Shown one piece after another: positions 1-16,130 of a DNA stretch of 56,034 nucleotides. The notes under the pieces were generated by a model. The model was not told where the DNA came from, searched no databases, and saw nothing but the letters and a program-made list of their open reading frames with translations. The position numbers and the translations under genes were made by a program. Each line of letters begins with the position of its first letter. The first letter of the stretch is position 1. Origin of the DNA: Planktothrix sp. PCC 11201 (GTDB taxonomy: Bacteria; Cyanobacteriota; Cyanobacteriia; Cyanobacteriales; Microcoleaceae); assembly GCF_900009135.1 (NCBI RefSeq), contig NZ_LT797699.1:1-56034 (forward strand), in the 5' to 3' direction.

Positions 1-56
1 TTTCTTGCTTCTTTTAACTGTTCGATTAATAATTGTTTCCAATCTTGATTATCCAT
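1..56 (-). CDS. N-terminal fragment of an unidentified gene leaving the window
   Basis: An ATG on the minus strand at 54-56 opens a frame that stays open to the window edge and reads MDNQDWKQLLIEQLKEAR. The peptide is charged and helical and matches no family I recognise. It is divergent from the gene starting at 92, so the 35 bp between them would have to hold both promoters. No strong Shine-Dalgarno sequence precedes the ATG. Only 18 codons are visible, so this is a tentative call. Confidence 0.4.
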   Translation of the reverse strand, partial: MDNQDWKQLLIEQLKEAR

Positions 57-91
57 ATGTAATAATTTAGAAAGAGTTTAGAAGATATCCC

Positions 92-364
92 ATGAATATA
101 AATTATAATCTATTATTTTTATTTGTTAGCAATATTATCGCTTTAGGTTTAGCTGTATGGAGATTATCTCAATGGGAAGAAAGATTACAGCATCAAATTA
201 ATGAAAATAAAAAAGATATTAATTGTGGGTTAGAATCTTTGCGCTCCGAAATGCGTAGACGAGATTATTTAATGGGAATTAAACTTAATACCCTTATTAA
301 GTTTATTGAAAAAACGAGTGATTACCAACCACCTACTATGGATGATTTCGATATTAAGGATTAA
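92..364 (+). CDS. small membrane-anchored coiled-coil protein, unknown function
   Basis: This 90-residue protein has one hydrophobic N-terminal segment (about residues 6-24). A charged, probably coiled-coil stretch (about 26-58) follows, and then an acidic C-terminus. The layout suggests a membrane anchor with a cytoplasmic helical tail, similar to small single-pass proteins common in cyanobacteria. A weak AGAAG ribosome-binding site lies 10 bp before the ATG. I recognise no family. It may belong to the mobile element or to cargo near its left end, which is not in the window. Confidence 0.55.
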   Translation: MNINYNLLFLFVSNIIALGLAVWRLSQWEERLQHQINENKKDINCGLESLRSEMRRRDYLMGIKLNTLIKFIEKTSDYQPPTMDDFDIKD

Positions 365-409
365 TTGAAAATGGTACAATAAAGGGTTATTTGTTTTGGA
401 GTGAGTTTT

Positions 410-592
410 ATGGCTGGAAAAGGTGGAAATACCAAGAGCGATATTGATTTTCGGTTAAGCTGTCCTACTGTAAGAATCCCCAAGCCCTATCATCGCGCTT
501 GCCAGGAATATGCTAAGGAGCTAGAAAACCGAGATGTTGAATCAGGAAAAGTGTATCAAGCCGATGATGGAAAATGGTATTACCGCGATTAA
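410..592 (+). CDS. small hypothetical protein (60 aa)
   Basis: I chose the ATG at 410 because GGAG (398-401) sits 8 bp upstream. A GTG at 401 in the same frame would overlap that ribosome-binding site. The product is about 60 residues, polar, with a basic and aromatic C-terminal end (YQADDGKWYYRD). No domain is recognised. A clear terminator follows at 661-687, so the gene ends its own short transcript. Its function cannot be inferred from the sequence. Confidence 0.55.
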   Translation: MAGKGGNTKSDIDFRLSCPTVRIPKPYHRACQEYAKELENRDVESGKVYQADDGKWYYRD

Positions 593-660
593 TCCAAGTA
601 TTGTTATAAGCTATTGACTTAAACCCATACTTAATAATCTTTCGTAATATTACTTTACAG

Positions 661-687
661 GAATCCTATTGACGGATTCTTTTTTTT
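661..687 (+). terminator. rho-independent terminator
   Basis: GAATCC (661-666) pairs with GGATTC (674-679) around a 7-nt loop and is followed directly by eight T (680-687). It lies 69 bp after the stop codon at 592 and separates that gene from the next transcription unit. Confidence 0.8.
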
Positions 688-709
688 GTTGCTACTGTAG
701 GTTTATTGG

Positions 710-742
710 TGAAACATCAATTGCTATAGATGAAACATCAAT
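710..742 (+). promoter_or_regulatory. two direct repeats 21 bp apart, probable operator
   Basis: TGAAACATCAAT occurs at 710-721 and again at 731-742. The 21-bp start-to-start spacing equals two helical turns, which places both copies on the same face of the DNA. They sit 38 bp upstream of the ATG at 780, the usual place for a repressor or activator site. The binding protein is unknown; the ribbon-helix-helix protein at 4983 is one candidate within the element. Confidence 0.5.
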
Positions 743-779
743 AAAGTTAAGTAAACAATGAGCGCATAAGGAAAACAAA

Positions 780-1088
780 ATGCCTAGACATAAAAAGACC
801 GTTAGCTTAACAACTGCTAATGACGCAGAGTTAACAAAAGTAATTCCCCATTTGACTCAATTGATTATGTCGATTAGTCCATTATATCCAGGGTTTCCAG
901 CTTTAACTTTGCACGATAAATTACAAAACGACAATTGGGATTTAAGCCCCCATGAACAACAATTTTTGTACGCAGGGATTGAGATGTTATCCATTCTGAG
1001 TAACGAGTTAAGACTCAATAACACATCTAGTTTTAAGTCAAAAATTGAGCAGAAAATTGAGTTGGCTCAAGCCCAAAATTCTCTCTAG
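780..1088 (+). CDS. hypothetical protein of the mobile element (102 aa)
   Basis: This 102-residue protein has a basic N-terminus (MPRHKKTVSLTTANDAE). The rest looks mainly helical, with the segment LSPHEQQFLYAGIEMLSILS in the middle. A purine-rich AAGGAAA precedes the ATG. No family is recognised. It is the first gene after the 21-bp-spaced direct repeats and is followed at 1094 by the first copy of the element's hairpin repeat, so it probably forms a single-gene transcription unit. The basic start and the operator-like repeats would fit an early regulator, but that is only a guess. Confidence 0.55.
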   Translation: MPRHKKTVSLTTANDAELTKVIPHLTQLIMSISPLYPGFPALTLHDKLQNDNWDLSPHEQQFLYAGIEMLSILSNELRLNNTSSFKSKIEQKIELAQAQNSL

Positions 1089-1093
1089 TTGAC

Positions 1094-1151
1094 CTCTAAT
1101 TATTTTCTATAGCCGCAATGGATAGCGGCTATAGACAGAAAACCTAACCAC
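1094..1151 (+). repeat. 58-bp hairpin leader repeat, copy 1
   Basis: This block is identical over all 58 bp to 2999-3056. It contains a perfect 10-bp palindrome, CTATAGCCGC (1107-1116) and GCGGCTATAG (1125-1134), around the loop AATGGATA. No T-run follows on either strand, so it is not a standard terminator. It lies 7 bp before the ATG at 1159, in the leader of that gene. See the finding on the three copies. Confidence 0.85.
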
Positions 1152-1158
1152 TAACACG

Positions 1159-1458
1159 ATGGATAATGACATCTACGACTGGACAGAAGTGATGGGAAAC
1201 AACATGATCACCCCTACACCCAGAATGGTTTATCTAAAACATCACATTCTTACCCGTAAAACCCGATTAAAAAGGGAAGGTAAGGACGGGATTGTTAGAC
1301 CTTTAAGGGTTAAGCATGATATTCACTTTGTAGTTTGGAGAATCGCTAACGTTTTAAAAGACTTTAAGTCATGTGATGAAGAAAAACTAAGAGAGGTTTT
1401 TGAATTAGTGATCCACGAAATTAATTCCAGGGGTGATGCTAATGAAGTATCAGAATAG
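1159..1458 (+). CDS. hypothetical basic protein of the mobile element (99 aa)
   Basis: This 99-residue protein has a basic central segment (about residues 29-52, rich in K and R) and a helical, more acidic C-terminal half. It is not recognised. Translation would start at the ATG right after hairpin repeat copy 1, without a clear Shine-Dalgarno sequence, so its leader may be controlled by the hairpin. Its 3' end overlaps the next gene by 17 bp, which implies translational coupling with the nuclease gene. The basic patch allows nucleic-acid binding as a guess. Confidence 0.55.
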   Translation: MDNDIYDWTEVMGNNMITPTPRMVYLKHHILTRKTRLKREGKDGIVRPLRVKHDIHFVVWRIANVLKDFKSCDEEKLREVFELVIHEINSRGDANEVSE

Positions 1459-1858
1459 TCCTGTAATAATGTACGGGATACAGTTTGATTCTAAGTGGGA
1501 GTGTGAAGTTTATAGACTTATCAAGTCTATAATTCCCCCAAGCTATATTTCTGTTCACGAAAGAGTGTTAATCAAGCCTACGACTAAAAATTATCGTGCG
1601 AGATATTGGAATTGTGACTTCATTATCAAAGATGATTTTGATAACCCCCTGCTACTAGTTGAAGCGAAGGGTATGCCTACAAGAGAATTTTTGAGGCAAC
1701 TACAGTTGTTAGATGCCTTTGAACCTACATTGATTGGCAAAATCAGAATCGTTCAACAGCAATCAACAAAAATTGATGAATGCTTTACCTCTCTTAATCC
1801 AACACAATTACAGGCGGAATTAAAGATTGTTTCAAAACAACTAAAAGGTGATTCATGA
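1442..1858 (+). CDS. PD-(D/E)XK nuclease-like protein (DUF1064/phage endonuclease type)
   Basis: The protein of about 138 residues carries the layout of small phage PD-(D/E)XK endonucleases. An N-terminal Glu lies in DSKWECEVYRL, followed by a basic segment, then Asp in WNCDFII and the E-x-K pair in LLLVEAKG. These residues form the metal-dependent phosphodiester-cleavage site in that superfamily. DUF1064-type proteins of phages have similar length and order. I chose the ATG at 1442 because AGGGG lies 8 bp upstream; GTG 1433 and ATG 1436 crowd that site. It overlaps the preceding gene by 17 bp and the next one by ATGA (1855-1858), so it is in an operon. A junction-resolving or DNA-processing role in element replication is an inference. 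Confidence 0.65.
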   Translation: MKYQNSPVIMYGIQFDSKWECEVYRLIKSIIPPSYISVHERVLIKPTTKNYRARYWNCDFIIKDDFDNPLLLVEAKGMPTREFLRQLQLLDAFEPTLIGKIRIVQQQSTKIDECFTSLNPTQLQAELKIVSKQLKGDS

Positions 1859-2106
1859 ACATTACAGATACCGACACTCAAACCCTAACAGATGAGCAAT
1901 TCATTAACTTGTTAGCATTTGCTTTTTTAATTTTGGTCAATGAAGTTACTGATGATGAAACCCGAAATGAGGTGAGTTCTTTAGTTGCAGAACAAGCTGT
2001 TCACATGACCGGTAATATGGAACCCGAGGATCTTAAACTGTTAGTTGATGCAGCAAGAAAGGCGTTCACTGCTGACTGGTATTTCTATCAGAACAACAAA
2101 AATTAA
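1855..2106 (+). CDS. small acidic helical protein, unknown function
   Basis: This 83-residue acidic protein starts in the ATGA overlap with the nuclease gene, so the two are translationally coupled. Most of the chain is predicted helical, with a hydrophobic stretch (FINLLAFAFLILVNEV) that is too amphipathic to be a safe membrane segment. The acidity and the coupling make a partner or inhibitor of the nuclease conceivable, but nothing in the sequence proves it. No family is recognised. Confidence 0.55.
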   Translation: MNITDTDTQTLTDEQFINLLAFAFLILVNEVTDDETRNEVSSLVAEQAVHMTGNMEPEDLKLLVDAARKAFTADWYFYQNNKN

Positions 2107-2184
2107 TTGCTTGACCGAAACGTCGTTAAACTACCCATCAGTTATTAGTTATCAGGATTAAAACTTTAGTAAGTAGGTGAGAGT

Positions 2185-2988
2185 ATGTATCGCTACAATA
2201 AAATCAGTGAAAAACTGAGTAAGTTAACTTTTGATAGCTATAATCGTCAGGATAGTGAGTTAACTTTCTTGGAAGCAAAGATTGTTAAAACCGAAAATTT
2301 TCTAACGATTTACGGTGCAATTTTGCCGGGAATATCTGGAAAATTTACTAACATAACAAAAGCAAAAAAACTGGATGACGGTAAATGGGGTAACGACCCT
2401 GACTTTAAGTTTCCAGTAGAAGGATTAGAAGCTAACCCCATGCCGTTAGTAATGATTCAAATACCTATCAAGGCATTCACTAACGATAAAGGTAAGGATA
2501 TCAAACCTTCTGTGAGTGAAGAATTTATTGCCAAAAAGTTGTTAGAAGATTTTGGCAATGGTGGAATGTTTGAGGGAATGTTGGATCTCGGTGTCGATAA
2601 AACAAGGATAGCTAAGTATGAGGAGTACATCGGATATGGTGACGCAGGATTATCCCGTGCGGTCGGAGTCTTAAAGGAGTTTTATAACGTATCGAAAATT
2701 GACGCTTTGACAACGATAACCGATGACGTTTTAAGTCAGGACACTAATGGAGCCAAAGGTAACGGGTACGGTGGGAAAAATTTTGTCCCTAAAGAGACAG
2801 AATCAGAGCGACTCAATGCCCGTGCCGAGTTCGCTAAACGATTCTTAGCTGATGACTGGGACAAAACCAAAGATTTCTCTGTGATTACATTTGATAGTTG
2901 CTTAACCCTCTGGGATGGACGCTCTCACGACTTAGGACAAAGTGGATGTCAGTATATGACAGACATTCTTAAAAATATCCTTTCTTAG
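2185..2988 (+). CDS. unknown protein next to the element ATPase (267 aa)
   Basis: This is a soluble 267-residue protein without recognised domains. The N-terminal two-thirds alternate short strand-like segments (LTIYGAILPGISGKF, PLVMIQIPI). A glycine- and asparagine-rich linker (about residues 188-200) separates them from a C-terminal part ending YMTDILKNIL. GTGAG lies just before the ATG. The gene is followed directly by hairpin repeat copy 2 and then the AAA+ ATPase. In small mobile replicons the gene beside the replicative helicase is often an initiator, primase or single-strand-binding protein, so such a role is possible, but I see no catalytic motif supporting it. Confidence 0.6.
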   Translation: MYRYNKISEKLSKLTFDSYNRQDSELTFLEAKIVKTENFLTIYGAILPGISGKFTNITKAKKLDDGKWGNDPDFKFPVEGLEANPMPLVMIQIPIKAFTNDKGKDIKPSVSEEFIAKKLLEDFGNGGMFEGMLDLGVDKTRIAKYEEYIGYGDAGLSRAVGVLKEFYNVSKIDALTTITDDVLSQDTNGAKGNGYGGKNFVPKETESERLNARAEFAKRFLADDWDKTKDFSVITFDSCLTLWDGRSHDLGQSGCQYMTDILKNILS

Positions 2989-2998
2989 TAGTAACAAG

Positions 2999-3056
2999 CT
3001 CTAATTATTTTCTATAGCCGCAATGGATAGCGGCTATAGACAGAAAACCTAACCAC
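2999..3056 (+). repeat. 58-bp hairpin leader repeat, copy 2
   Basis: Identical over 58 bp to copy 1 at 1094-1151. The palindrome arms are at 3012-3021 and 3030-3039. The repeat lies 11 bp before the ATG of the ATPase gene at 3068, and the ribosome-binding site (AAGGA) follows it immediately. It again acts as the leader of a downstream gene. Confidence 0.85.
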
Positions 3057-3067
3057 ACGAAAGGAAT

Positions 3068-4240
3068 ATGGAACATTTAGACTTTGTTGATTATCGACTT
3101 GACAGAGAGGAGGACGGCATAGATTATCGTGACCTCTGCGATCCAAAAGATAATTTTTATTCAAGAATCGACTCCCTTCTGTCTCAGATAGTGATTTTAC
3201 CGTCCAGTGACTTGCAGACAATCCCGTTAATCTCGTTCCTGTTAACACCGAGTGCAATGTCAAATAACTTACCCATAGGGGTGCTATACGGTGCAAGCGG
3301 TAGCGGCAAAAGTGAGACAGCAAAATTTATCGCAACATTACACAACACCCCTATGCAGACCGCAGCGAGTACGTTCGCGAGTATCCGTAACCTGATTTCA
3401 AATAGCCGCTATTATGATAGCGATAAAGAGTTTGAGAAAAATTTTTTATTGGTTTGGGATGATATCAACGAAAAGGTTTTTACCGATTCAGAACAAATGT
3501 TTTCAATGTTTAAAAGCGGTATTAATCGAAAATCAGTTATCACTATTGCTGACAAGATGGGGATAAACATGGAGTTTTACCCGTTCTCGCCAAAGCTGGT
3601 TAGTACCGTTAATCCGTTCTGGGATAACCCTAAGCTAACTGAATTAAAACGCCGTTTAATACCGTTTTTATTCTCTAAAATCCAAGATTATTCAAGTGTA
3701 GAAGTTAACCTACTCTCTGTAGAAGATATTAACTTCAATGGATTAAATAGCGAATTTGAACAATTCTGGCACATCCAAGAAAATAGAACGAGCTTTAACC
3801 AAAAAAAACGGGGGCTTGCCCGATTGAAAAGTGAAATAATCCCGTTAGAAGTTTTTCGACTGTATCAAGATAATATGGCTGCGTGTTGCGTATTACTTGA
3901 TATTCCACTTAAAGAAGCATTAACGCTTTGGGAAAAATACTTCCAATTCATAAACGAAAAGATATTTGATACTAATGTTGGTATCAAGCGAATTTTTGAA
4001 GATTATATCGATAGAGAGGAGAATGAAGTTTTAGAGATAATGGAAATTCAGAATAAATTATCTGAGAGAATCTTCATTAAACCCCTAACAATCTTTGATT
4101 ATTTAGATGGTTGTTACTCTAACGGTGAGATATCTCAAAAACCAGATAGAGCGATTATTGAGGGTTTGTTAGTAGGTTGTGGATATCAAAAGACCAAAAC
4201 AAAGATTGGTTATCAGTGGACTAAAACATTAAATCTGTAA
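3068..4240 (+). CDS. AAA+/SF3-helicase-like ATPase of the mobile element
   Basis: This 390-residue protein has a complete ATPase core. Walker A is GASGSGKS (residues 75-82), Walker B is FLLVWDD (126-132), a sensor-1 polar residue lies in LVSTVN (about 177-182), and paired arginines in TELKRRLIPF (195-196) could be the arginine finger. The spacing fits phage and plasmid superfamily-3 helicases or closely related AAA+ replication ATPases. The N-terminal 65 residues are too short for a primase, so any priming activity would have to come from another gene such as the one at 2185. The C-terminal part (about 330-390) may be a winged-helix domain. I infer that it unwinds or remodels the element's origin. 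Confidence 0.65.
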   Translation: MEHLDFVDYRLDREEDGIDYRDLCDPKDNFYSRIDSLLSQIVILPSSDLQTIPLISFLLTPSAMSNNLPIGVLYGASGSGKSETAKFIATLHNTPMQTAASTFASIRNLISNSRYYDSDKEFEKNFLLVWDDINEKVFTDSEQMFSMFKSGINRKSVITIADKMGINMEFYPFSPKLVSTVNPFWDNPKLTELKRRLIPFLFSKIQDYSSVEVNLLSVEDINFNGLNSEFEQFWHIQENRTSFNQKKRGLARLKSEIIPLEVFRLYQDNMAACCVLLDIPLKEALTLWEKYFQFINEKIFDTNVGIKRIFEDYIDREENEVLEIMEIQNKLSERIFIKPLTIFDYLDGCYSNGEISQKPDRAIIEGLLVGCGYQKTKTKIGYQWTKTLNL

Positions 4241-4298
4241 ATAATCAGTCATCAGTTATCAGTTTTAACCAAATCTATCAGGATTGAGGATTAAACCA

Positions 4299-4712
4299 AT
4301 GAAAATTAGAACAATCAAACTCAAACATTGTGATTTATGGTCAGTCAGTCTTTCAAGGGATATTAACTTGTGTTTGAGTTTCTTTTCGTTAAAAGCATTA
4401 ATCATTAAGCCGGAATTTTTCACTAAAGGAATAATGGGGTCACAAATAACAACCTTTAATCTTTTCACCCTTTCAATTCAATTAATCACCCCTAGATTAT
4501 TCTTTTGGGTTAATGACAATAAACTAATTAATCTAGCGGTAAATATCCTACATGACAGGGCTTTAGAATTACAGGATTATCAAGTTGATTACCTACTCGG
4601 GAATATTGAGTACAACGCTGAAAAAATGGCAGACTGCAACGCAGAATCAAGTGTTTTATGGAATTTAATCAATTTTTATGGAGTTAATAAAGAGGTAATA
4701 CTGAAGCGATGA
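4299..4712 (+). CDS. hypothetical protein of the mobile element (137 aa)
   Basis: I place the start at the ATG at 4299, with GAGG (4286-4289) 9 bp upstream; a TTG at 4284 in frame would overlap that site. The product of about 137 residues has a basic N-terminal half rich in hydrophobic strands (LCLSFFSLKALIIK, LFTLSIQLITPRLFFWV) and an acidic helical C-terminal half with two Cys-containing segments. It shares ATGA (4709-4712) with the next gene, so the two are coupled. No family is recognised. Confidence 0.5.
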   Translation: MKIRTIKLKHCDLWSVSLSRDINLCLSFFSLKALIIKPEFFTKGIMGSQITTFNLFTLSIQLITPRLFFWVNDNKLINLAVNILHDRALELQDYQVDYLLGNIEYNAEKMADCNAESSVLWNLINFYGVNKEVILKR

Positions 4713-4909
4713 AATATTTACTTGAATTTAAGACGGAGGACGACTACGAAATTAAGGAAATAGAGTTTGACACGATACAGGAGGTTTGTGAATTTGTCAT
4801 CAAAAACAGAACCGATATGTGGGAATACTGGTTACTCTATGATCCTAAAGGTAATTGGATTGCAGACAATTGGACAGGTCTTAATAGTAGTTGGCTGATT
4901 GACCTCTAA
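4709..4909 (+). CDS. small acidic protein, unknown function (66 aa)
   Basis: This 66-residue acidic protein is rich in aromatic residues (five Trp). It starts within the stop codon of the preceding gene (ATGA overlap). The pattern MKYLLEFKTEDDYEIKEIEF suggests an alternating beta-strand start. No family is recognised. Its last codons run into the left flank of hairpin repeat copy 3, so the repeat's TTGACCTCTAAT flank is partly coding here. Confidence 0.5.
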   Translation: MKYLLEFKTEDDYEIKEIEFDTIQEVCEFVIKNRTDMWEYWLLYDPKGNWIADNWTGLNSSWLIDL

Positions 4910-4955
4910 TTTCCTTTTATAGCCGCTATCCATTGCGGCTATAGAAAATAATTAG
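4899..4955 (+). repeat. hairpin leader repeat, copy 3, core inverted
   Basis: The left flank TTGACCTCTAATT (4899-4911) is the same as at copy 1 (1089-1101). The palindrome (about 4917-4944) is in the opposite orientation, since its loop reads TATCCATT instead of AATGGATA. The right flank AAAATAATTAG (4945-4955) is the reverse complement of the left flank of copies 1 and 2. The core and one flank have therefore been inverted while the outer left flank kept its orientation. It precedes the ribbon-helix-helix gene. Confidence 0.8.
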
Positions 4956-4982
4956 CTACACATAGAAGGAATGCTGGACATT

Positions 4983-5225
4983 ATGGGCAAAATTGACAAC
5001 CTAGAAAAAGGTAGGCAAAAAATATTTAATGATGATTTGGAAAAGGTACGAACCACGCTAACCCTATCTAAATCATCCCGTGAGTTTCTAAGTAATAGGG
5101 GTAATAAGATGAGCGAAACTATAGAAGCGTTGGTCTGGTTAGCATCTAACGGCAAGTCGGGGTATTTAAGCCAAAGATTTGAACTATGGAAGGAGTTGCC
5201 ACCGGGTAAATTTAAACATCGGTAA
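4983..5225 (+). CDS. ribbon-helix-helix (CopG/Arc-like) DNA-binding protein
   Basis: The protein of about 80 residues contains a segment typical of ribbon-helix-helix repressors: a beta-strand, RTTLTLS, then helix A (KSSREFLSNRGN) and helix B starting at MSETIEALVWLA. Such proteins dimerise and insert the strand pair into the major groove. I prefer the ATG at 4983, because the ATG at 4971 directly abuts the AGAAGGA site with no spacer; 4971 remains possible. The gene directly follows hairpin repeat copy 3, so autoregulation through that palindrome is an obvious but untested idea. It is the best regulator candidate in the element. Confidence 0.6.
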   Translation: MGKIDNLEKGRQKIFNDDLEKVRTTLTLSKSSREFLSNRGNKMSETIEALVWLASNGKSGYLSQRFELWKELPPGKFKHR

Positions 5226-5261
5226 TTTATTTTGTGCAACTACTTATTAGGAGATTAAACA

Positions 5262-5528
5262 ATGAATCATCAAATCAAACCATTTTCTAGGTATATATGG
5301 CAGATAACTTATCAATTTGGAGAATATGCCACTTATACCGAAACACTAAAAGAAGCAATGAATAATAGTTGTTTTCTTAATTATGCTGACCATGATGTAG
5401 AATGTGGGTTCTGGACATGGGATTCCATCGAAAAACACTGTAAAAAATACGGCTATGCCAGAGGGAGTTATGATGTAAAAAAAGATGATTATTGGTGGGA
5501 AGTTAAAAAAGTAAAACAATTTTCGTAA
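5262..5528 (+). CDS. hypothetical protein of the mobile element (88 aa)
   Basis: This 88-residue protein is rich in Tyr, Trp and Lys, with no recognised domain. A good ribosome-binding site (AGGAG) lies about 8 bp before the ATG. The gene is the last plus-strand gene of the element, and its stop codon abuts the large nested palindrome at 5529-5665. The palindrome could act as a 3' end structure for this transcript, although it has no T-run. Confidence 0.55.
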   Translation: MNHQIKPFSRYIWQITYQFGEYATYTETLKEAMNNSCFLNYADHDVECGFWTWDSIEKHCKKYGYARGSYDVKKDDYWWEVKKVKQFS

Positions 5529-5665
5529 AAACAGTATCCCCCCCAACCGGACAAAACCTCTTAAATGAAGCGTAGTAAAGTTGTCAAGAGGTACTCAGTG
5601 AAACGTCTCTTGACAAGTGAACAAGCGAAATAAAATAGAGGTTGACGGTTAGGGGGGGGATACTG
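5529..5665. repeat. 137-bp nested three-level palindrome
   Basis: Three inverted repeats are nested. The outer arms are ACAGTAT-C7-AACCG (5531-5549) against CGGTTA-G8-ATACTGT (5645-5665). The middle arms are AACCTCT (5555-5561) and AGAGGTT (5637-5643). The inner arms are TTGTCAAGAG (5581-5590) and CTCTTGACAA (5607-5616), around a 16-nt loop. About 36 base pairs could form. The inner right arm contains a consensus -35 hexamer TTGACA (5610-5615) with TAAAAT 15 bp further on. Possible identities are a structured RNA, a replication or transfer origin, or a MITE whose terminal inverted repeats are the outer arms. No partner gene allows a choice. Confidence 0.75.
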
Positions 5666-5720
5666 TTAATATAAGTTTGAGCTTGAGTTTAGTAAATCTC
5701 GCTTCTTAAAAAAATCAAAA

Positions 5721-5796
5721 CTACTATTAACCCTCCTGAACAGATACCCGGTTGCAACTTAATGGAAATCGGTAGTAGGTAATCCAGGGGGGTTTT
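5721..5796 (+). other. pseudoknot-like RNA segment, candidate
   Basis: AACCCTCCTG (5729-5738) can pair with CAGGGGGGTT (5785-5794) over 10 bp including one G-U pair. CTACTA (5721-5726), lying outside that stem, can pair with TAGTAG (5773-5778) inside its loop, the topology of an H-type pseudoknot. It lies in the 434-bp gene-free stretch between 5529 and 5962. Apart from the nested palindrome, this segment and the integrase terminator, I see nothing there. The pairing could arise by chance. Confidence 0.3.
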
Positions 5797-5906
5797 AAGT
5801 GTCTACTTTTTTACGGTTCTGTAGAAATATTTTCTATCTTCCCTTTATACATACCTTGGGAAGATTCACACTCAACACTCCCAATCCCTACCGACACAGC
5901 CCCAAT

Positions 5907-5935
5907 AAAAAAGCAACCCTGGTTAGAGGTTGCTT
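5907..5935 (-). terminator. terminator of the integrase gene
   Basis: Read on the minus strand, AAGCAACC and GGTTGCTT (5911-5918 and 5928-5935 on plus) form an 8-bp stem followed by a run of six T (5907-5912, overlapping the stem base). It lies 28 bp after the integrase stop codon. Confidence 0.8.
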
Positions 5936-5962
5936 GATAGATTTTTAATTTTGTCTTAGGCT

Positions 5963-7453
5963 CTAATCGTCTAATTGATAGATGATTCGCAGAATTGCTT
6001 TAACCGATGGATCGTCTAAGTTAAAGCCAGAGGATTCTAGTTCTCCTATGGCTACCTGATAGGGTAGCGGGTATTTTGTCGCTTGTTCTGCTAAATCATT
6101 AGCGGTCGCCATTGTTTGACGGTTATAAAACTGTTCACTAGCCAACTCTGTATGCCCCATATTTTTGGCGATAACTCCTATGGGTAGCCCTGACAACAAA
6201 CCCATCATCTTCCCTAGGTGTCTAAATGAGTACCCTTGAGTTGTTGGACATTTCCAGTCTTGTAGTTTGTCACCAAGTTCATTAGAAAATCCACCCGCTA
6301 TTGTTCTTGGTTTACTATTGGCGTTTGGAGTATATTCTGGTAACTGAACGGGAATATTCTGTAATTTTAAGTAATTTAAAATTACTTTGTTTTGACAGGG
6401 AGGGTAGCAAAATCTCCCACCAGTTTTATTGGTAATAAAGTGTTTTTTACCAGATGTATCAGTAACCTCAAATCCGTTGCCCAAAATTAACAACATTTTG
6501 GGATTGTTAACCTTATCATTAAATGCGGGGTTAATGCCTTTAGAGTCGGCGTACTTTTTTCCTTTTTCGCCCCATAGTTTTTTAACTTCATTATTGCTAA
6601 TTGGTTTAAACAAATTAATGGCACTCATAATTTCAGCAGGTCTTAACCCGTAGGCTACACACATTTTAAAAATCCATAACCATCCCTCCCTTGCCATTGC
6701 TTGCTTTTCTGGCATTTCTTGGACTAACTTCTCTTGAGATTGCAACCATTCAAAGAATTGCTCCCAATCAATGGCTTTAGTATTCTCCCCTCGTTTTTTT
6801 TCAACCTTAATTCTGTTAAGTTTTGGCAATATTTCCTTTTTTGTTAATTCAGGACAATAGGAGATGATTTTTTTAATCTTTCCTAACGCTTCATACTGAC
6901 AGGTATTTTCTGGGAAGCGTTCCCAGAATGCTTTGGCGTTATCCCAATCAGGGTACTCATCCCAGTTAAGACATTTTACAAAATAATCTGTATATGTCCT
7001 CTGAAAAGATGATTGACAACTAACTGACTCTCTTGACCGCTTCTCACCCGTAAATTTATGCCGTCCTTGATAGTATTCATTTTCGATAATCTCGAAAATT
7101 TGACGGTAGGTTAGACGGTCATCGCTCCCTAACTTGTTGCTGGGTAGGATATTCTTAAGCCACAAATCCCATTCACTAGCGTTAATTCCCTCCCGTTTAG
7201 CTTCATTTAGTTTTGTTCTTAACTTGATACACTTTTCCAAAAAGTCATTAATACCCGCAATACTCCATTCACACCCTGATCCTAGTAATTTTTGCTTACC
7301 TCCCTGATAAGGTTCTGTGAATTTAAAGTTAAGTCGGGTTTCAACCCTTTGGGCTACCCCTTTAGGGATTAGCGGCTCAATAGCCAACCAATGTTTTAGA
7401 ACGTCTCCATACGTTCCAAAACCCTCTACAGTGACGTTATCCAATCTATCCAT
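5963..7453 (-). CDS. tyrosine recombinase (element integrase)
   Basis: This 496-residue site-specific recombinase catalyses element integration and excision. The catalytic pattern is visible: first Arg in GLRPAEI (R271), a Y-S-F-R box (408-411) replacing the usual H-x-x-R, His in NMGH (H434) and the nucleophile Tyr in QFYNR (Y443). Tyr instead of the first His also occurs in other cyanobacterial integrases, from memory. The N-terminal 250 residues would hold the arm- and core-binding domains. The gene reads toward the element interior and its start lies 80 bp from the tRNA-fragment junction, the usual layout of tRNA-targeting integrases. Direct repeats of CTATCCATT overlap its start codon and suggest autoregulation. 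Confidence 0.9.
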   Translation of the reverse strand: MDRLDNVTVEGFGTYGDVLKHWLAIEPLIPKGVAQRVETRLNFKFTEPYQGGKQKLLGSGCEWSIAGINDFLEKCIKLRTKLNEAKREGINASEWDLWLKNILPSNKLGSDDRLTYRQIFEIIENEYYQGRHKFTGEKRSRESVSCQSSFQRTYTDYFVKCLNWDEYPDWDNAKAFWERFPENTCQYEALGKIKKIISYCPELTKKEILPKLNRIKVEKKRGENTKAIDWEQFFEWLQSQEKLVQEMPEKQAMAREGWLWIFKMCVAYGLRPAEIMSAINLFKPISNNEVKKLWGEKGKKYADSKGINPAFNDKVNNPKMLLILGNGFEVTDTSGKKHFITNKTGGRFCYPPCQNKVILNYLKLQNIPVQLPEYTPNANSKPRTIAGGFSNELGDKLQDWKCPTTQGYSFRHLGKMMGLLSGLPIGVIAKNMGHTELASEQFYNRQTMATANDLAEQATKYPLPYQVAIGELESSGFNLDDPSVKAILRIIYQLDD

Positions 7454-7492
7454 TTTCTATCCATTCCAAAATTAATCACTTATTTTGGATAG
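7446..7492 (-). promoter_or_regulatory. phased repeats over the integrase start
   Basis: CTATCCATT occurs at 7446-7454, where it includes the start codon, and again at 7457-7465, exactly 11 bp apart. An inverted half (TGGATAG) lies at 7486-7492, and CCAAAAT/ATTTTGG also forms a local palindrome. One-turn phasing points to cooperative protein binding, either arm-type recombinase sites or a repressor operator. Confidence 0.45.
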
Positions 7493-7532
7493 ACTACTGA
7501 ACGATAGAATCAGTGTTTGAACGTTATTCGGG

Positions 7533-7554
7533 AGTTCGAGTCTCGCCATCCGCA
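7533..7554 (+). other. attachment site: 3' end of a tRNA gene (probably tRNA-Leu)
   Basis: AGTTCGAGTCTCGCCATCCGCA is the end of a tRNA: half a T-stem, the TTCGAGT loop, the returning stem CTCGC, the acceptor strand CATCCGC and discriminator A. The tRNA body is missing to the left. The T-stem fails at G7531 (G opposite G), as expected if everything left of the 22-bp core is element DNA. From memory, the sequence and A73 resemble cyanobacterial tRNA-Leu, but the isotype is not proven. The complete tRNA should lie left of the window. Confidence 0.75.
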
Positions 7555-7560
7555 TTAGTT

Positions 7561-8475
7561 TTAAACCTGATCAGTACCTTGCTGTATATATTTCAAAAGA
7601 GTAGAGGCGACAAAAAAAGCCAAATTAACAGGAACAGAGTTTCCAATCATTTGTTCTAAATTGGTTTTTGTTCCTATAAATTTAAAAGAATCGGGGAAGG
7701 TTTGAATATAACTCCGTTCAATTGTTGATAAAGGTCTGATTGTGGTTAGATCAATATCTTGCGGATCACCCCTATGGAGTTTATAGTTGGGTGGGATCGG
7801 ACGATTAACCCCTCTGATGGTGGGACTGGGTTCATCAATAGAAAATATCCCTCGTCGCGCGTAGCTTCTGGGATGTCTATAATAATATTGGAGATTCAAT
7901 CTATCCCCAAGATAATCTCTAACTGTCATTGGTTTTTTTGATAAACCCAACTTCAATAAATCTACCAAAGCATTATATTTCCCCCCCAGTTCACCAATCA
8001 GAAAAAAGCGAGATCTCGATTGGGGTGTATGACAAAAAGACGCATTTAAAACAATTGCAGATAAACCATAACCATTGCTCAAAAACTGCTCAGATATTTG
8101 CTTCAAAATAGGACTTTTAGTTATTCTTGGTACATTTTCCATAACAAACCATTGAGGCTGAATAGCACAAACAATATTAGCAAAGTTATAAGTTAAATTA
8201 GCGCGATCGCCGTTTAAATCTCGCTTTCCCGCACTAGAAAAATCTTGACAGGGCGGGCCACCAATAATCATTTCAGGATCAAGTTTTTGAATAATTTTGA
8301 TAGCTGCAACTTCATCCGTGAGATCTTGTAAAATTGCCAAATGATCAAAATTAGCTTGATAGACCTCTAGGGATGGATTCCAGTTGTCAATAGCTGCCAA
8401 TATCTCAATTCCCGCTTGCTTAAACCCAAGGGATAAACCACCACAACCACAAAATAAATCAACCGCAGTAATCAT
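7561..8475 (-). CDS. DNA (cytosine-5-)-methyltransferase
   Basis: This 304-residue enzyme transfers a methyl group from S-adenosylmethionine to C5 of cytosine in a specific sequence. Motif I is DLFCGCGGLSLGF (residues 6-18), motif IV holds the catalytic Cys in GGPPCQDFS (C76), motif VI is ENV (113-115), motif VIII is QSRSR (152-156) and the C-terminal motif is IGNSVP (about 281-286). The variable target-recognition region lies between about 170 and 260 and is short. No cognate endonuclease is adjacent, so it is an orphan here. Its stop codon lies 6 bp from the end of the att core. The gene contains HIP1 octamers and therefore looks like host DNA. Its target site cannot be read from sequence. 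Confidence 0.9.
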   Translation of the reverse strand: MITAVDLFCGCGGLSLGFKQAGIEILAAIDNWNPSLEVYQANFDHLAILQDLTDEVAAIKIIQKLDPEMIIGGPPCQDFSSAGKRDLNGDRANLTYNFANIVCAIQPQWFVMENVPRITKSPILKQISEQFLSNGYGLSAIVLNASFCHTPQSRSRFFLIGELGGKYNALVDLLKLGLSKKPMTVRDYLGDRLNLQYYYRHPRSYARRGIFSIDEPSPTIRGVNRPIPPNYKLHRGDPQDIDLTTIRPLSTIERSYIQTFPDSFKFIGTKTNLEQMIGNSVPVNLAFFVASTLLKYIQQGTDQV

Positions 8476-14047: not shown

Positions 14048-14254
14048 ATGACTAAAACTCTTGATGTTACTGGCTTAACTTCTGAACAAATCGAGCAGAT
14101 TTATGTAATCATAGACACATTCAGAGCTATTAATAAACAGCAAAACCCATTGACAGAAGATCAACTATCAGAATTTGATCTAACTCCGTTGTTTTTTGAA
14201 AGTGAAATCCTTCAGCCATTTAATCGAAGTCTGCTTTATGGCAACAGAATCTAA
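14048..14254 (+). CDS. probable VapB-type antitoxin
   Basis: This 68-residue acidic protein precedes a PIN-domain toxin gene and overlaps it by 17 bp. It begins MTKTLDVTGLTSEQIEQIYVI, a short strand followed by a helical segment, similar to small cyanobacterial antitoxins paired with PIN toxins. No clear ribbon-helix-helix or AbrB motif can be defined. The call rests mostly on gene order and overlap, which give co-translation of the pair. A TATAAT-like sequence (TTATAATATT) lies 26 bp upstream. Confidence 0.6.
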   Translation: MTKTLDVTGLTSEQIEQIYVIIDTFRAINKQQNPLTEDQLSEFDLTPLFFESEILQPFNRSLLYGNRI

Positions 14255-14687
14255 ACGAATTTATCTTGATACCAACATTCTCGCTTATGTTGCTAATACC
14301 AAAGCACCTCAACACAAGACTGCATTAGAAATATTTCGACCCTGTGAAACAGAAATTCTCTGCGTTTCATCACAAGTTTTAGCAGAATTTTATTCCTATA
14401 TTACAAATCCTGCTATCTTAGCAAAACCCTTAGAACCAACAGAAGCTATTAAGCGCATTCAACGAATTTGTCAAATGCCTCATGTCCGCTTGCTCTCAAC
14501 TCCTTTCGATCTTTTTGAAGGTTGGATGAGGTTATTGGAAGAACAACCTGTGACCAATGGAGGGATTTTTGACTTACTTCATATTGCCATTATGTTATCT
14601 CATCAAGTCACCAGTATTTACACTTTTAATGTCAAGGATTTTTCTTGGTGTTCCCAAATTAAAGTTATTGATCCTAGTCATCTTTAA
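14238..14687 (+). CDS. vapC: PIN-domain ribonuclease toxin (VapC family)
   Basis: This 149-residue protein has the four acidic residues of PIN-domain RNases: D11 in YLDTNIL, E50 in LAEFYSY, D112 in GIFDLLHIAIM and D134 in NVKDF. VapC toxins use such a site with magnesium to cut tRNA or rRNA. I chose the ATG at 14238; an upstream in-frame codon at 14196 would overlap the antitoxin by 59 bp. The 17-bp overlap with the antitoxin gene is typical of type II modules. All active-site residues are intact, so it is probably functional. Confidence 0.8.
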   Translation: MATESKRIYLDTNILAYVANTKAPQHKTALEIFRPCETEILCVSSQVLAEFYSYITNPAILAKPLEPTEAIKRIQRICQMPHVRLLSTPFDLFEGWMRLLEEQPVTNGGIFDLLHIAIMLSHQVTSIYTFNVKDFSWCSQIKVIDPSHL

Positions 14688-14739
14688 AAAGTCCAAATAA
14701 ATACTGGAATACTTAACCGAAAATACCTTTAAAAATTCA

Positions 14740-14767
14740 GTAGAGACGCTGCATTCAACGCCTCTAC
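14740..14767. repeat. dispersed hairpin between convergent genes
   Basis: GTAGAGACG (14740-14748) and CGCCTCTAC (14759-14767) form a stem with one A-C mismatch. It lies between vapC (plus) and thrC (minus) and could terminate both. The GTAGAGACG...CTCTAC palindrome is a familiar scattered repeat in cyanobacterial genomes. Confidence 0.55.
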
Positions 14768-14777
14768 AAACAACAAA

Positions 14778-15869
14778 TTAAAATCCCATGACTGTTGCAA
14801 CAGCTTCCATTTCTGGTGCAATTCCGGCTTTGAATTTATTGTTGCTGTGAGTAATAGCCGTATCGGGATCTTTTAACCCATTTCCAGTTAACACACAAAC
14901 AATTTTAATCCCCTCTGGAACCTGATCTTTCACTTTCAATAATCCGGCAACGGAGGCGGCACTAGCAGGCTCACAGAAAATTCCCTCCCCAGAAGCTAAC
15001 AACCGATAGGCGTCGAGAATTTCGGCATCGGTGACAGCGTTAAAACTACCTTGACTGGCATCTTTAGCCGCCACCGCAAAGTCCCAACTCGCCGGATTTC
15101 CAATTCTAATTGCTGTTGCTAAGGTTTCGGGGTTTTCCACCGGATGGCCTAATACTAACGGTGCGGCTCCGGCGGCTTGAAATCCCATCATTTGGGGTAA
15201 ACGAGAACATTTCCCAACAGAATGATATTGACAAAATCCCATCCAATAGGCACTAATATTCCCGGCATTGCCCACCGGAATACATAACCAGTCGGGGGCA
15301 TCTCCCAGGGCATCTACCACCTCAAAGGCGGCGGTTTTTTGGCCTTCTAAACGATAGGGATTAACAGAATTAACTAAAGTAATCGGATAATGTTCGGCCA
15401 TCTCCCGCACAATATTTAGTGCCTGATCAAAATTACCCTTAATCGCTAAGACTTCTGCCCCATATAATAACGCTTGGGCCAGTTTCCCTAACGCCACATA
15501 ACCATCGGGAATTAAGACAAAGGCTTTCATCCCGGCTCGACGGGCATAGGCGGCGGCTGCTGCTGAAGTATTTCCGGTACTGGCACAGATGACGGCTTTG
15601 CTGCCTTCCTCTTTGGCTTTGGAAATCGCCATGGTCATGCCTCGGTCTTTGAAACTACCTGTGGGGTTGAGTCCGTCATATTTCACATAGACTTGCACCT
15701 GTTTGCCAATGATTTCGGCAATGGTTGGGGCCGGAATCAGGGGCGTGTTGCCTTCTTGTAGGGTGATAACGGGTGTCGATTCAGAAACAGGTAAATAGTT
15801 GCGGTAGGCTTCAATCAGACCAGGCCAGCACTTCAATGAGGACTGGGTTGTAGGCAAAGTCAACGTCAT
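14778..15869 (-). CDS. thrC: threonine synthase
   Basis: This 363-residue pyridoxal-phosphate enzyme converts O-phosphohomoserine to threonine, the last step of threonine synthesis. It shows [10 protein letters not shown], the PLP lysine in GSFKDRGM, the Ser/Thr-rich [14 protein letters not shown], the glycine loop PVGNAGN and the end [11 protein letters not shown] take the ATG at 15869 ([10 protein letters not shown]) as start; the frame continues upstream only through a TTG at 15915-15917 without a ribosome-binding site. Length agrees with cyanobacterial ThrC of the short, bacterial type. Confidence 0.92.
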
Positions 15870-16130
15870 CTCGGTAGTAGTTAATAAACGAAAAATAATC
15901 CGGTTAAGGATTGACAAATAGACGGATTTATGATACTCAGGAATGCTCTTGACGGTTGGAATCTATAAACTTTATCAGTTGACAGGATCAGCCGTTGGGT
16001 GTATTCCTTAATTTAGTTTACCTTCTCGTTTACATTCCGTGAAAAAACTAATCAATTTTGATGTTTTTTTCTATGGGAGTAAACGTTCAGGGTAAAATAT
16101 AGTTAAGATTTGTTGAGCTAACATTTTTAG

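What the first reader, a model, noticed from the sequence alone, without database searches (positions are those of the whole stretch)
1..7554. Small integrated element with an unrecognised gene set
Seen: tyrosine integrase beside a tRNA 3' fragment, an AAA+/SF3-like ATPase, a PD-(D/E)XK nuclease, a ribbon-helix-helix protein and about eight short orphan genes, all on the plus strand, with no structural, lysis or conjugation genes. Inference: an integrative plasmid or phage satellite of cyanobacteria whose core (unknown 267-aa protein plus ATPase) may be a new replication module. The left end is outside the window, so cargo or a helper-dependent module could be missing.
Basis: partly seen in the sequence, partly recalled or inferred. 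Interest (0 to 1): 0.75.

Follow-up and report, generated by a model that had tools for sequence, protein, structure and literature searches.

The report
Dark integrated element in cyanobacterial tRNA genes
A filamentous cyanobacterium carries a mobile element, probably about 18,000 letters long, inserted in a transfer-RNA gene; most of its genes resemble nothing known, it has relatives in other cyanobacteria, and it may be an undescribed kind of virus.

Summary
The element is real and precisely integrated. A 37-bp direct repeat links the end of contig C18 (intact tRNA-Leu(GAG)) to window 7532-7568; two of nine other same-genus genomes carry the flanks uninterrupted. The window holds only the right ~7.5 kb; the left arm is probably contig C9 (9,951 bp). 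A close copy lies at tRNA-Arg(CCG) on C21 and a diverged one in another genome of the genus (L194). The left arm holds ten proteins conserved between C21 and L194 under purifying selection, without convincing matches in the libraries scanned. So 'no structural genes' reflects the contig end. The replication block (p99, DUF1064 nuclease, p267, AAA+ ATPase) recurs in several cyanobacteria; Arthrospira PCC 9108 has 26 ATPase loci, nine with a tRNA gene in the fetched stretch. In L194 a VapE-like primase-helicase replaces the ATPase, supporting a replication role. Six IMG/VR scans, and ATPase searches of phage and plasmid records, found no relative. Best reading: a family of integrative elements, most likely proviruses of an undescribed lineage. 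A capsid is not shown: AlphaFold failed and capsid-candidate homology is weak.

The parts
1..56 (-). First codons of the leftward-arm gene c400 (400 aa in the C21 copy), cut by the contig end
   Evidence: window 1-1864 = L019:6910-8773 at 99.7%; c400 is L019:5763-6965, minus strand
92..364 (+). 90-aa protein with an N-terminal hydrophobic segment (residues 3-26)
   Evidence: homologue in L194 (72% identity)
401..592 (+). 63-aa orphan
   Evidence: copy in C21
780..1088 (+). 102-aa orphan
   Evidence: copy in C21
1108..1133 (.). 26-bp intergenic palindrome; other window copies at 3013-3038 and 4918-4943
   Evidence: 15 sites in the genome (C9 3, C17 3, C21 7, C24 2)
1159..1458 (+). p99, first gene of the conserved replication block
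   Evidence: Family F3
1433..1858 (+). DUF1064 nuclease, Holliday-junction-resolvase-like
   Evidence: family F2
1855..2106 (+). 83-aa orphan
   Evidence: relative in C21
2185..2988 (+). p267, conserved unknown protein of the replication block
   Evidence: Family F4; no useful match in Pfam, PHROGs, NCBIfam; weak AlphaFold model, pLDDT 51
3068..4240 (+). 390-aa AAA+ type ATPase, probable replication helicase
   Evidence: Invariant Walker A residues and R195 R196 in six sequences; a VapE-like protein is present instead in L194
4284..4909 (+). Two orphan ORFs, 142 aa (4284-4712) and 66 aa (4709-4909)
4971..5225 (+). 84-aa small protein (RHH-like by eye only)
   Evidence: no Pfam match
5262..5528 (+). 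88-aa orphan
5531..5665 (.). Long hairpin, also in Arthrospira elements; candidate origin or processing site
   Evidence: Folds at -63 kcal/mol; similar architecture in Arthrospira elements
5963..7453 (-). Divergent tyrosine recombinase (integrase), 496 aa
   Evidence: A6 invariant R271, K343, R411, H434, Y443, with Y408 in place of the first H of HxxR (motif knowledge recalled)
7501..7523 (+). Possible arm-type sequence next to attR
   Evidence: By eye only, limited to 6 mismatches, did not list it, but listed related motifs beside the integrases in L019, L182, L187 and L194
7532..7568 (+). attR: 37-bp copy of the tRNA-Leu(GAG) 3' end (23 bp) plus 14 bp

Best explanation
The window holds the right part of an integrative element of probably ~18 kb, most likely a provirus of an undescribed virus lineage of filamentous cyanobacteria. 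Shown: integration by a 37-bp att repeat into tRNA-Leu(GAG); a two-arm layout in a close copy and in a relative; a recurring replication block; exchange of the replication gene and of a cassette of arm genes; tRNA-gene sites in several relatives. Inferred: the divergent tyrosine recombinase excises a circle by recombining attL and attR. The ATPase works as replicative helicase with p267 and the nuclease, perhaps at the hairpin (5531-5665). The leftward arm (c400, c219, c88, c143, c164, c118, c120, c312, c316, c753, c80, c121, with c352 in the other direction) encodes a particle or other transfer machine.
For: att repeat and empty site. Copy between two tRNA-Arg(CCG) att cores, C21:70023 and 87428. 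Same arm without any N in another genome of the genus. Purifying selection: dN/dS 0.07-0.21 for six arm pairs (dS 1.1-2.5, so rough); four others with saturated dS have pN/pS 0.30-0.48. Replication block in the same order in relatives. A VapE-like/DUF3854 protein stands in the ATPase's place in L194 (7e-74) and a similar one beside the C24 integrase. Different proteins in the c219-c143 slot of C9 and C21. Spread within one genome.
Against: No capsid, portal, terminase or packaging ATPase was recognised among the proteins scanned. AlphaFold of the candidate capsid failed (pLDDT 37). Homology of the ~200-aa first-arm proteins across genera is not established: hhalign probabilities 0.4-3.7%; five of 21 pairs exceed all 12 shuffles, only two of them with more than 40 aligned columns, best probability 6.6%. 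No relative in IMG/VR by six queries or, for the ATPase, in phage records, which is odd for an active virus. No read evidence of excision. C21 and C9 are imperfectly assembled repeats.
Confidence: 0.5

Rival explanations
1. A non-viral integrative element (integrative plasmid): the right arm replicates the excised circle and the left arm encodes cell-surface or other proteins that benefit the element; transfer is passive or by unknown means.
For: No virion gene recognised; c753 and its L194 relative have proline-repeat stretches (Pfam PARP match 6.8e-5, far below cut-off), as some surface proteins do.
Against: Ten collinear arm genes under purifying selection; exchange of a gene cassette at the start of the arm looks like viral module exchange. 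Signal peptides were judged by eye only.
Confidence: 0.25
2. A helper-dependent phage satellite that is packaged in the capsid of another cyanophage.
For: Small size, tRNA site and a replication module suit satellites (recalled).
Against: No capsid-size, terminase or packaging homologue found among scanned proteins; the left arm is larger than I would expect of a satellite. A helper was not searched for.
Confidence: 0.1
3. A transposon-like element that multiplies inside genomes with a relaxed integrase, horizontal transfer being secondary.
For: Arthrospira PCC 9108: 57 left-end and 66 right-end motif matches, 0 for the reversed-pattern control; cores range from different tRNA 3' ends to short non-tRNA sites (30 of each inspected); integrases 84-91% identical to one reference lie beside different cores.
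Against: In the window's genome the two well-resolved copies sit at tRNA genes; many Arthrospira copies are broken.
Confidence: 0.1
4. Decayed remnant of an ordinary tailed prophage.
For: The nuclease resembles a phage Holliday junction resolvase.
Against: No tailed-phage structural match in the arm proteins scanned, in arms under selection.
Confidence: 0.03

Closest known systems
Tycheposons of Prochlorococcus (passages of PMC10872708; original paper recalled, not read)
   Same: Tyrosine recombinase, tRNA gene at one border
   Different: Tycheposons are described there as cargo carriers of 4-200 kb; here probably ~18 kb, no metabolic match among scanned proteins, a conserved dark arm, and relatives at many different tRNAs
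Picocyanobacterial elements with a novel tyrosine integrase, PMC10187409 (passages)
   Same: Divergent integrase missed by standard models, next to tRNA genes, in cyanobacteria
   Different: That integrase lies near tRNA-Phe or tRNA-Cys in variable islands, often with a small serine recombinase; homology to the present integrase was not tested
Elements with a VapE-like/DUF3854 primase-helicase
   Same: Same integrase family and, in L194, the same left arm
   Different: The replication gene is a different family from the window's 390-aa ATPase
Tailless bacterial viruses such as Varidnaviria and Finnlakeviridae (search listing with abstract starts only)
   Same: Genome in the size range I recall for them; no tail genes seen
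   Different: No jelly-roll capsid or packaging ATPase demonstrated here

Membership tests
tRNA-integrated element with tyrosine recombinase | Integrase gene beside att; direct repeat containing the tRNA 3' end; empty site in relatives | tested here: met
   recombinase by motif, not by Pfam
Tailed-phage prophage (Caudoviricetes) | Terminase, portal, HK97-type capsid, tail genes | tested here: not met
   No match among proteins scanned (Pfam; PHROGs). c80 and c121 were not scanned; c753 and c316 were scanned in Pfam only through their L194 relatives. Weak PHROG hits: c164 to a baseplate wedge subunit E 0.031, Okeania 740 aa to a major head protein E 0.1
[quoted passage not shown]
   AlphaFold of the Arthrospira 213-aa candidate pLDDT 37; c118 to the STIV penton Pfam model only E 0.086
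Jelly-roll capsid tailless virus | FtsK/HerA-type packaging ATPase | tested here: inconclusive
   No such Pfam match among proteins scanned; c80 and c121 not scanned
Tycheposon | Metabolic or nutrient cargo with tRNA and tyrosine recombinase | tested here: not met
   No metabolic match among element proteins scanned; recombinase kinship to tycheposons not tested
Integrative conjugative or mobilisable element | Relaxase or type IV secretion genes | tested here: not met
   No match among element proteins scanned
Phage satellite | Packaging by a helper phage | not testable with these tools
   Needs induction with a helper
SF3 helicase | Walker A and B, motif C, arginine finger in an AAA+ fold | tested here: inconclusive
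   Motifs seen in A1 (assignment by eye and recall); PF00910 only E 0.03; hhalign to VapE aligns Walker A only, to a D5/DUF5906 protein nothing useful

The most novel reading that the evidence does not exclude
The family is a new lineage of temperate, probably tailless, cyanobacterial viruses with a capsid module unrelated in sequence to any known one, an integrase able to use the T-arm of many different tRNA genes, and interchangeable replication modules, and it has filled one Arthrospira genome with 26 loci, many of them broken.
Probability: 0.4. Interest if true: 0.88.

Novelty: new variant of a known kind. Interest (0 to 1): 0.72.

Why it matters
If the left arm makes particles, this is a virus group of bloom-forming and cultivated cyanobacteria that the virus collections searched here do not contain, with capsid genes that the sequence methods used here cannot recognise. 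If not, it is still a mobile element family with relatives in several cyanobacterial genera whose integrase uses the best-conserved part of tRNA genes and so can occupy many of them. Either way the window's host and Arthrospira PCC 9108 offer direct tests: excision PCR, particle purification and proteomics.

Tried and rejected
Chance att: rejected by the 37-bp identity, the single other match to the tRNA core and the empty site. C21 ATPase as pseudogene: the break lies at a single N (C21:84776), so probably an assembly joint. Candidate capsid fold: AlphaFold failed. p267 fold: pLDDT 51, no PDB match at E<=0.001. Wider hairpin search: only the own genome among 386 cyanobacteria; G018 and G023, which have it, are not in that list. 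Homology of the ~200-aa first-arm proteins: weak. Defence island: the ATPase matches AbiLi weakly (3e-4); rejected because the gene sits in a recurring replication block. PDB profile searches with the integrase, c219 and c352 families gave nothing useful. Literature: six searches (titles and abstract starts seen) and passages of PMC10187409 and PMC10872708; no description of this element appeared in the rows listed.
Full report
SETTING. The window is bases 1-56034 of contig C17 (200,479 bp) of a 5.99-Mb, 103-contig genome. Its family contains Arthrospira sp. PCC 9108, Okeania sp. SIO2B3, Kamptonema sp. UHCC 0994 and Oscillatoriales USR001, as matching contig lengths show. I believe the genus is Planktothrix, but that is recall. 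Window base 1 is a contig end.

THE ELEMENT IS INTEGRATED. The tRNA fragment at 7530-7553 has one other match in the genome (up to two mismatches), C18:196141-196164, ending 52 bases before the end of that contig. There it lies in an intact tRNA-Leu(GAG), L020:8085-8166. The shared stretch is 37 bp, window 7532-7568 = L020:8144-8180: 23 bp of tRNA and 14 bp beyond. A 500-base query joining the C18 flank to the bases right of 7568 aligns over 485-489 bases at 92-93% in two of the nine other same-genus genomes searched, G001 and G009. The other seven match the two sides in separate places or only one side. G001 and G009 have no match to the ATPase or the integrase. So C18 and C17 flank one inserted element, and an empty site exists.

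THE MISSING LEFT ARM. A copy on C21 lies between att cores of tRNA-Arg(CCG) at C21:70023 and C21:87428. Window 1-1864 matches it at 99.7%, other parts at 90% and 82%, which probably explains why the assembly stopped at window base 1. To the left it continues as a leftward arm: c400, c219, c88, c143, c164, c118, c120, c312, c316, c753, c80, c121, with c352 in the opposite direction. C21 has three single Ns; at one of them about 1 kb (window 3876-4878, from the ATPase's 3' part on) is missing. A host flank with tRNA-Arg occurs twice with the same ORFs; I cannot tell a tandem from a scaffolding fault. A 26-bp palindrome found three times in the window has 15 sites in the genome, and this led to contig C9 (9,951 bp, no N). 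C9 carries another left arm: 7,667 bases at 99.0% and 469 bases at 99.8% to C21, with a different cassette between them. By C21 coordinates C9 ends 46 bases before the position of window base 1. The simplest reading is C18 - C9 - C17, about 18 kb in all; this is inference.

THE ARM IS REAL AND SELECTED. Another genome of the genus (G002, locus L194, no N) has the same arm in one piece next to an integrase of the same family. Ten arm proteins are 48-88% identical to those of C21; dN/dS is 0.07-0.21 for the six with unsaturated dS (dS itself 1.1-2.5, so rough), and pN/pS 0.30-0.48 for the other four. No arm protein scanned has a convincing match: Pfam and PHROGs for nine C21 arm proteins, relatives in Arthrospira, USR001, Okeania and L194, NCBIfam for a few, PADLOC for five C21 arm proteins and one from L194. 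c80 and c121 were not scanned. Weak hits below the curated cut-offs: Trypan_PARP 6.8e-5 (proline repeats, L194 697 aa) and TPR_Rlf 0.0083 (L194 219 aa). c118, c120 and c80 are not among the ORFs listed for L194 (not searched further), and in C9 a 237-aa and a 118-aa protein stand where C21 has c219 to c143: variable parts.

REPLICATION. p99, the DUF1064 nuclease, p267 and the ATPase lie in this order in the window, C21, G018, one Arthrospira copy (Arth40), USR001, Kamptonema, G235 and G343; in another Arthrospira copy (Arth42) only p267 and the ATPase were linked, in G181 p99, nuclease and ATPase, in Okeania nuclease and ATPase. The ATPase keeps Walker A and an Arg-Arg pair in six sequences. 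In L194 the arm and p267 are kept, but one search found no such ATPase in G002, and an 805-aa VapE-like/DUF3854 protein is there (7e-74). This is the best evidence that the ATPase serves replication. Its SF3 nature stays unproven. A ~135-bp hairpin just downstream (5531-5665) has a similar nested architecture in Arthrospira elements; on seven sequences 47 pairs are predicted and five have a two-sided change, but the covariation term is slightly unfavourable (+1.74), so covariation does not prove the fold.

INTEGRASE AND TARGETS. The integrase is missed by Pfam PF00589 (one search lists no match on C17). In four sequences R271, K343, R411, H434 and Y443 are invariant, a plausible catalytic set, with Y408 where most tyrosine recombinases have H (motif knowledge recalled). 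The profile finds matches in 34 of 98 genomes, own included, some of them weak; eight in the own genome, on C17, C21 (2), C24 (2), C19 (2 pieces) and C6. Family elements lie at tRNA-Leu, tRNA-Arg and, in USR001, tRNA-Gly. Of the 29 loci found by the ATPase alignment in the collection of 84,980 species genomes, 26 lie in Arthrospira sp. PCC 9108 (the scan used one peptide pattern); nine of the 26 have a tRNA gene in the fetched stretch, of Met, Leu (three anticodons), Phe, Pro, Asp, Gln and His type, seven of which I saw to abut an element end. That genome has 57 left-end and 66 right-end motif matches, none for the reversed control; I inspected 30 of each. Integrases 84-91% identical to one reference lie beside different cores; a second group is 37-39% identical. 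The tRNA-type cores I read begin at the T-loop.

DISTRIBUTION. ATPase: 8 of 59 genomes, own included; 16 of 386 cyanobacteria by profile, of which five, own included, score above 130 bits and eleven below 27 bits. IMG/VR: no relative with p267, ATPase, candidate capsid, c400, c312 or integrase; these scans need conserved peptide patterns, so distant relatives can be missed. Plasmid and phage records: none with the ATPase; other proteins were not tried there.

VERDICT. Integrative element: near certain. Two-arm design: well supported. Provirus: likely but unproven; the capsid candidate could not be modelled, and homology of the ~200-aa first-arm proteins across genera is weak (in one search five of 21 pairs exceed 12 shuffles, two with more than 40 aligned columns).

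Noticed in passing
Arthrospira loci L096-L155 and L042: The integrase cassette (mostly about 1.6 kb) is flanked by inverted right-end motifs and the element body (about 1.8-19 kb by my pairing of coordinates) by inverted left-end motifs, with a full att-like site between them: integrase and body might move separately. In some copies the inner core differs from the outer one, as if recording an earlier site.
   Followed up: partly
window 1108-1133, 3013-3038, 4918-4943: 26-bp palindrome between genes, 15 sites in the genome; those on C9, C17 and C21 lie in elements of this family, of the two on C24 one (174452) is unresolved; perhaps terminators.
   Followed up: partly
window 7561-8475: A C5 cytosine methyltransferase gene (Pfam 8e-66) ends inside the attR repeat.
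   Followed up: no
L031:7493-9305 and 14231-16043: Host flank with tRNA-Arg twice on C21, with the same ORFs: tandem or scaffolding fault.
   Followed up: no
L156:15442-16580 (C6): Remnant with an integrase N-terminus and a tRNA-Arg-type attR core near a tRNA-Thr.
   Followed up: partly
L182:14585-19926 and L183:3727-3798 (C24): Two further integrase genes, a 746-aa VapE-like protein and a tRNA-Thr(TGT): another element, possibly tandem.
   Followed up: partly
Arthrospira loci among L040-L068: Many Arthrospira copies have p267 or the 213-aa gene split; true decay and sequencing errors could not be told apart.
   Followed up: no
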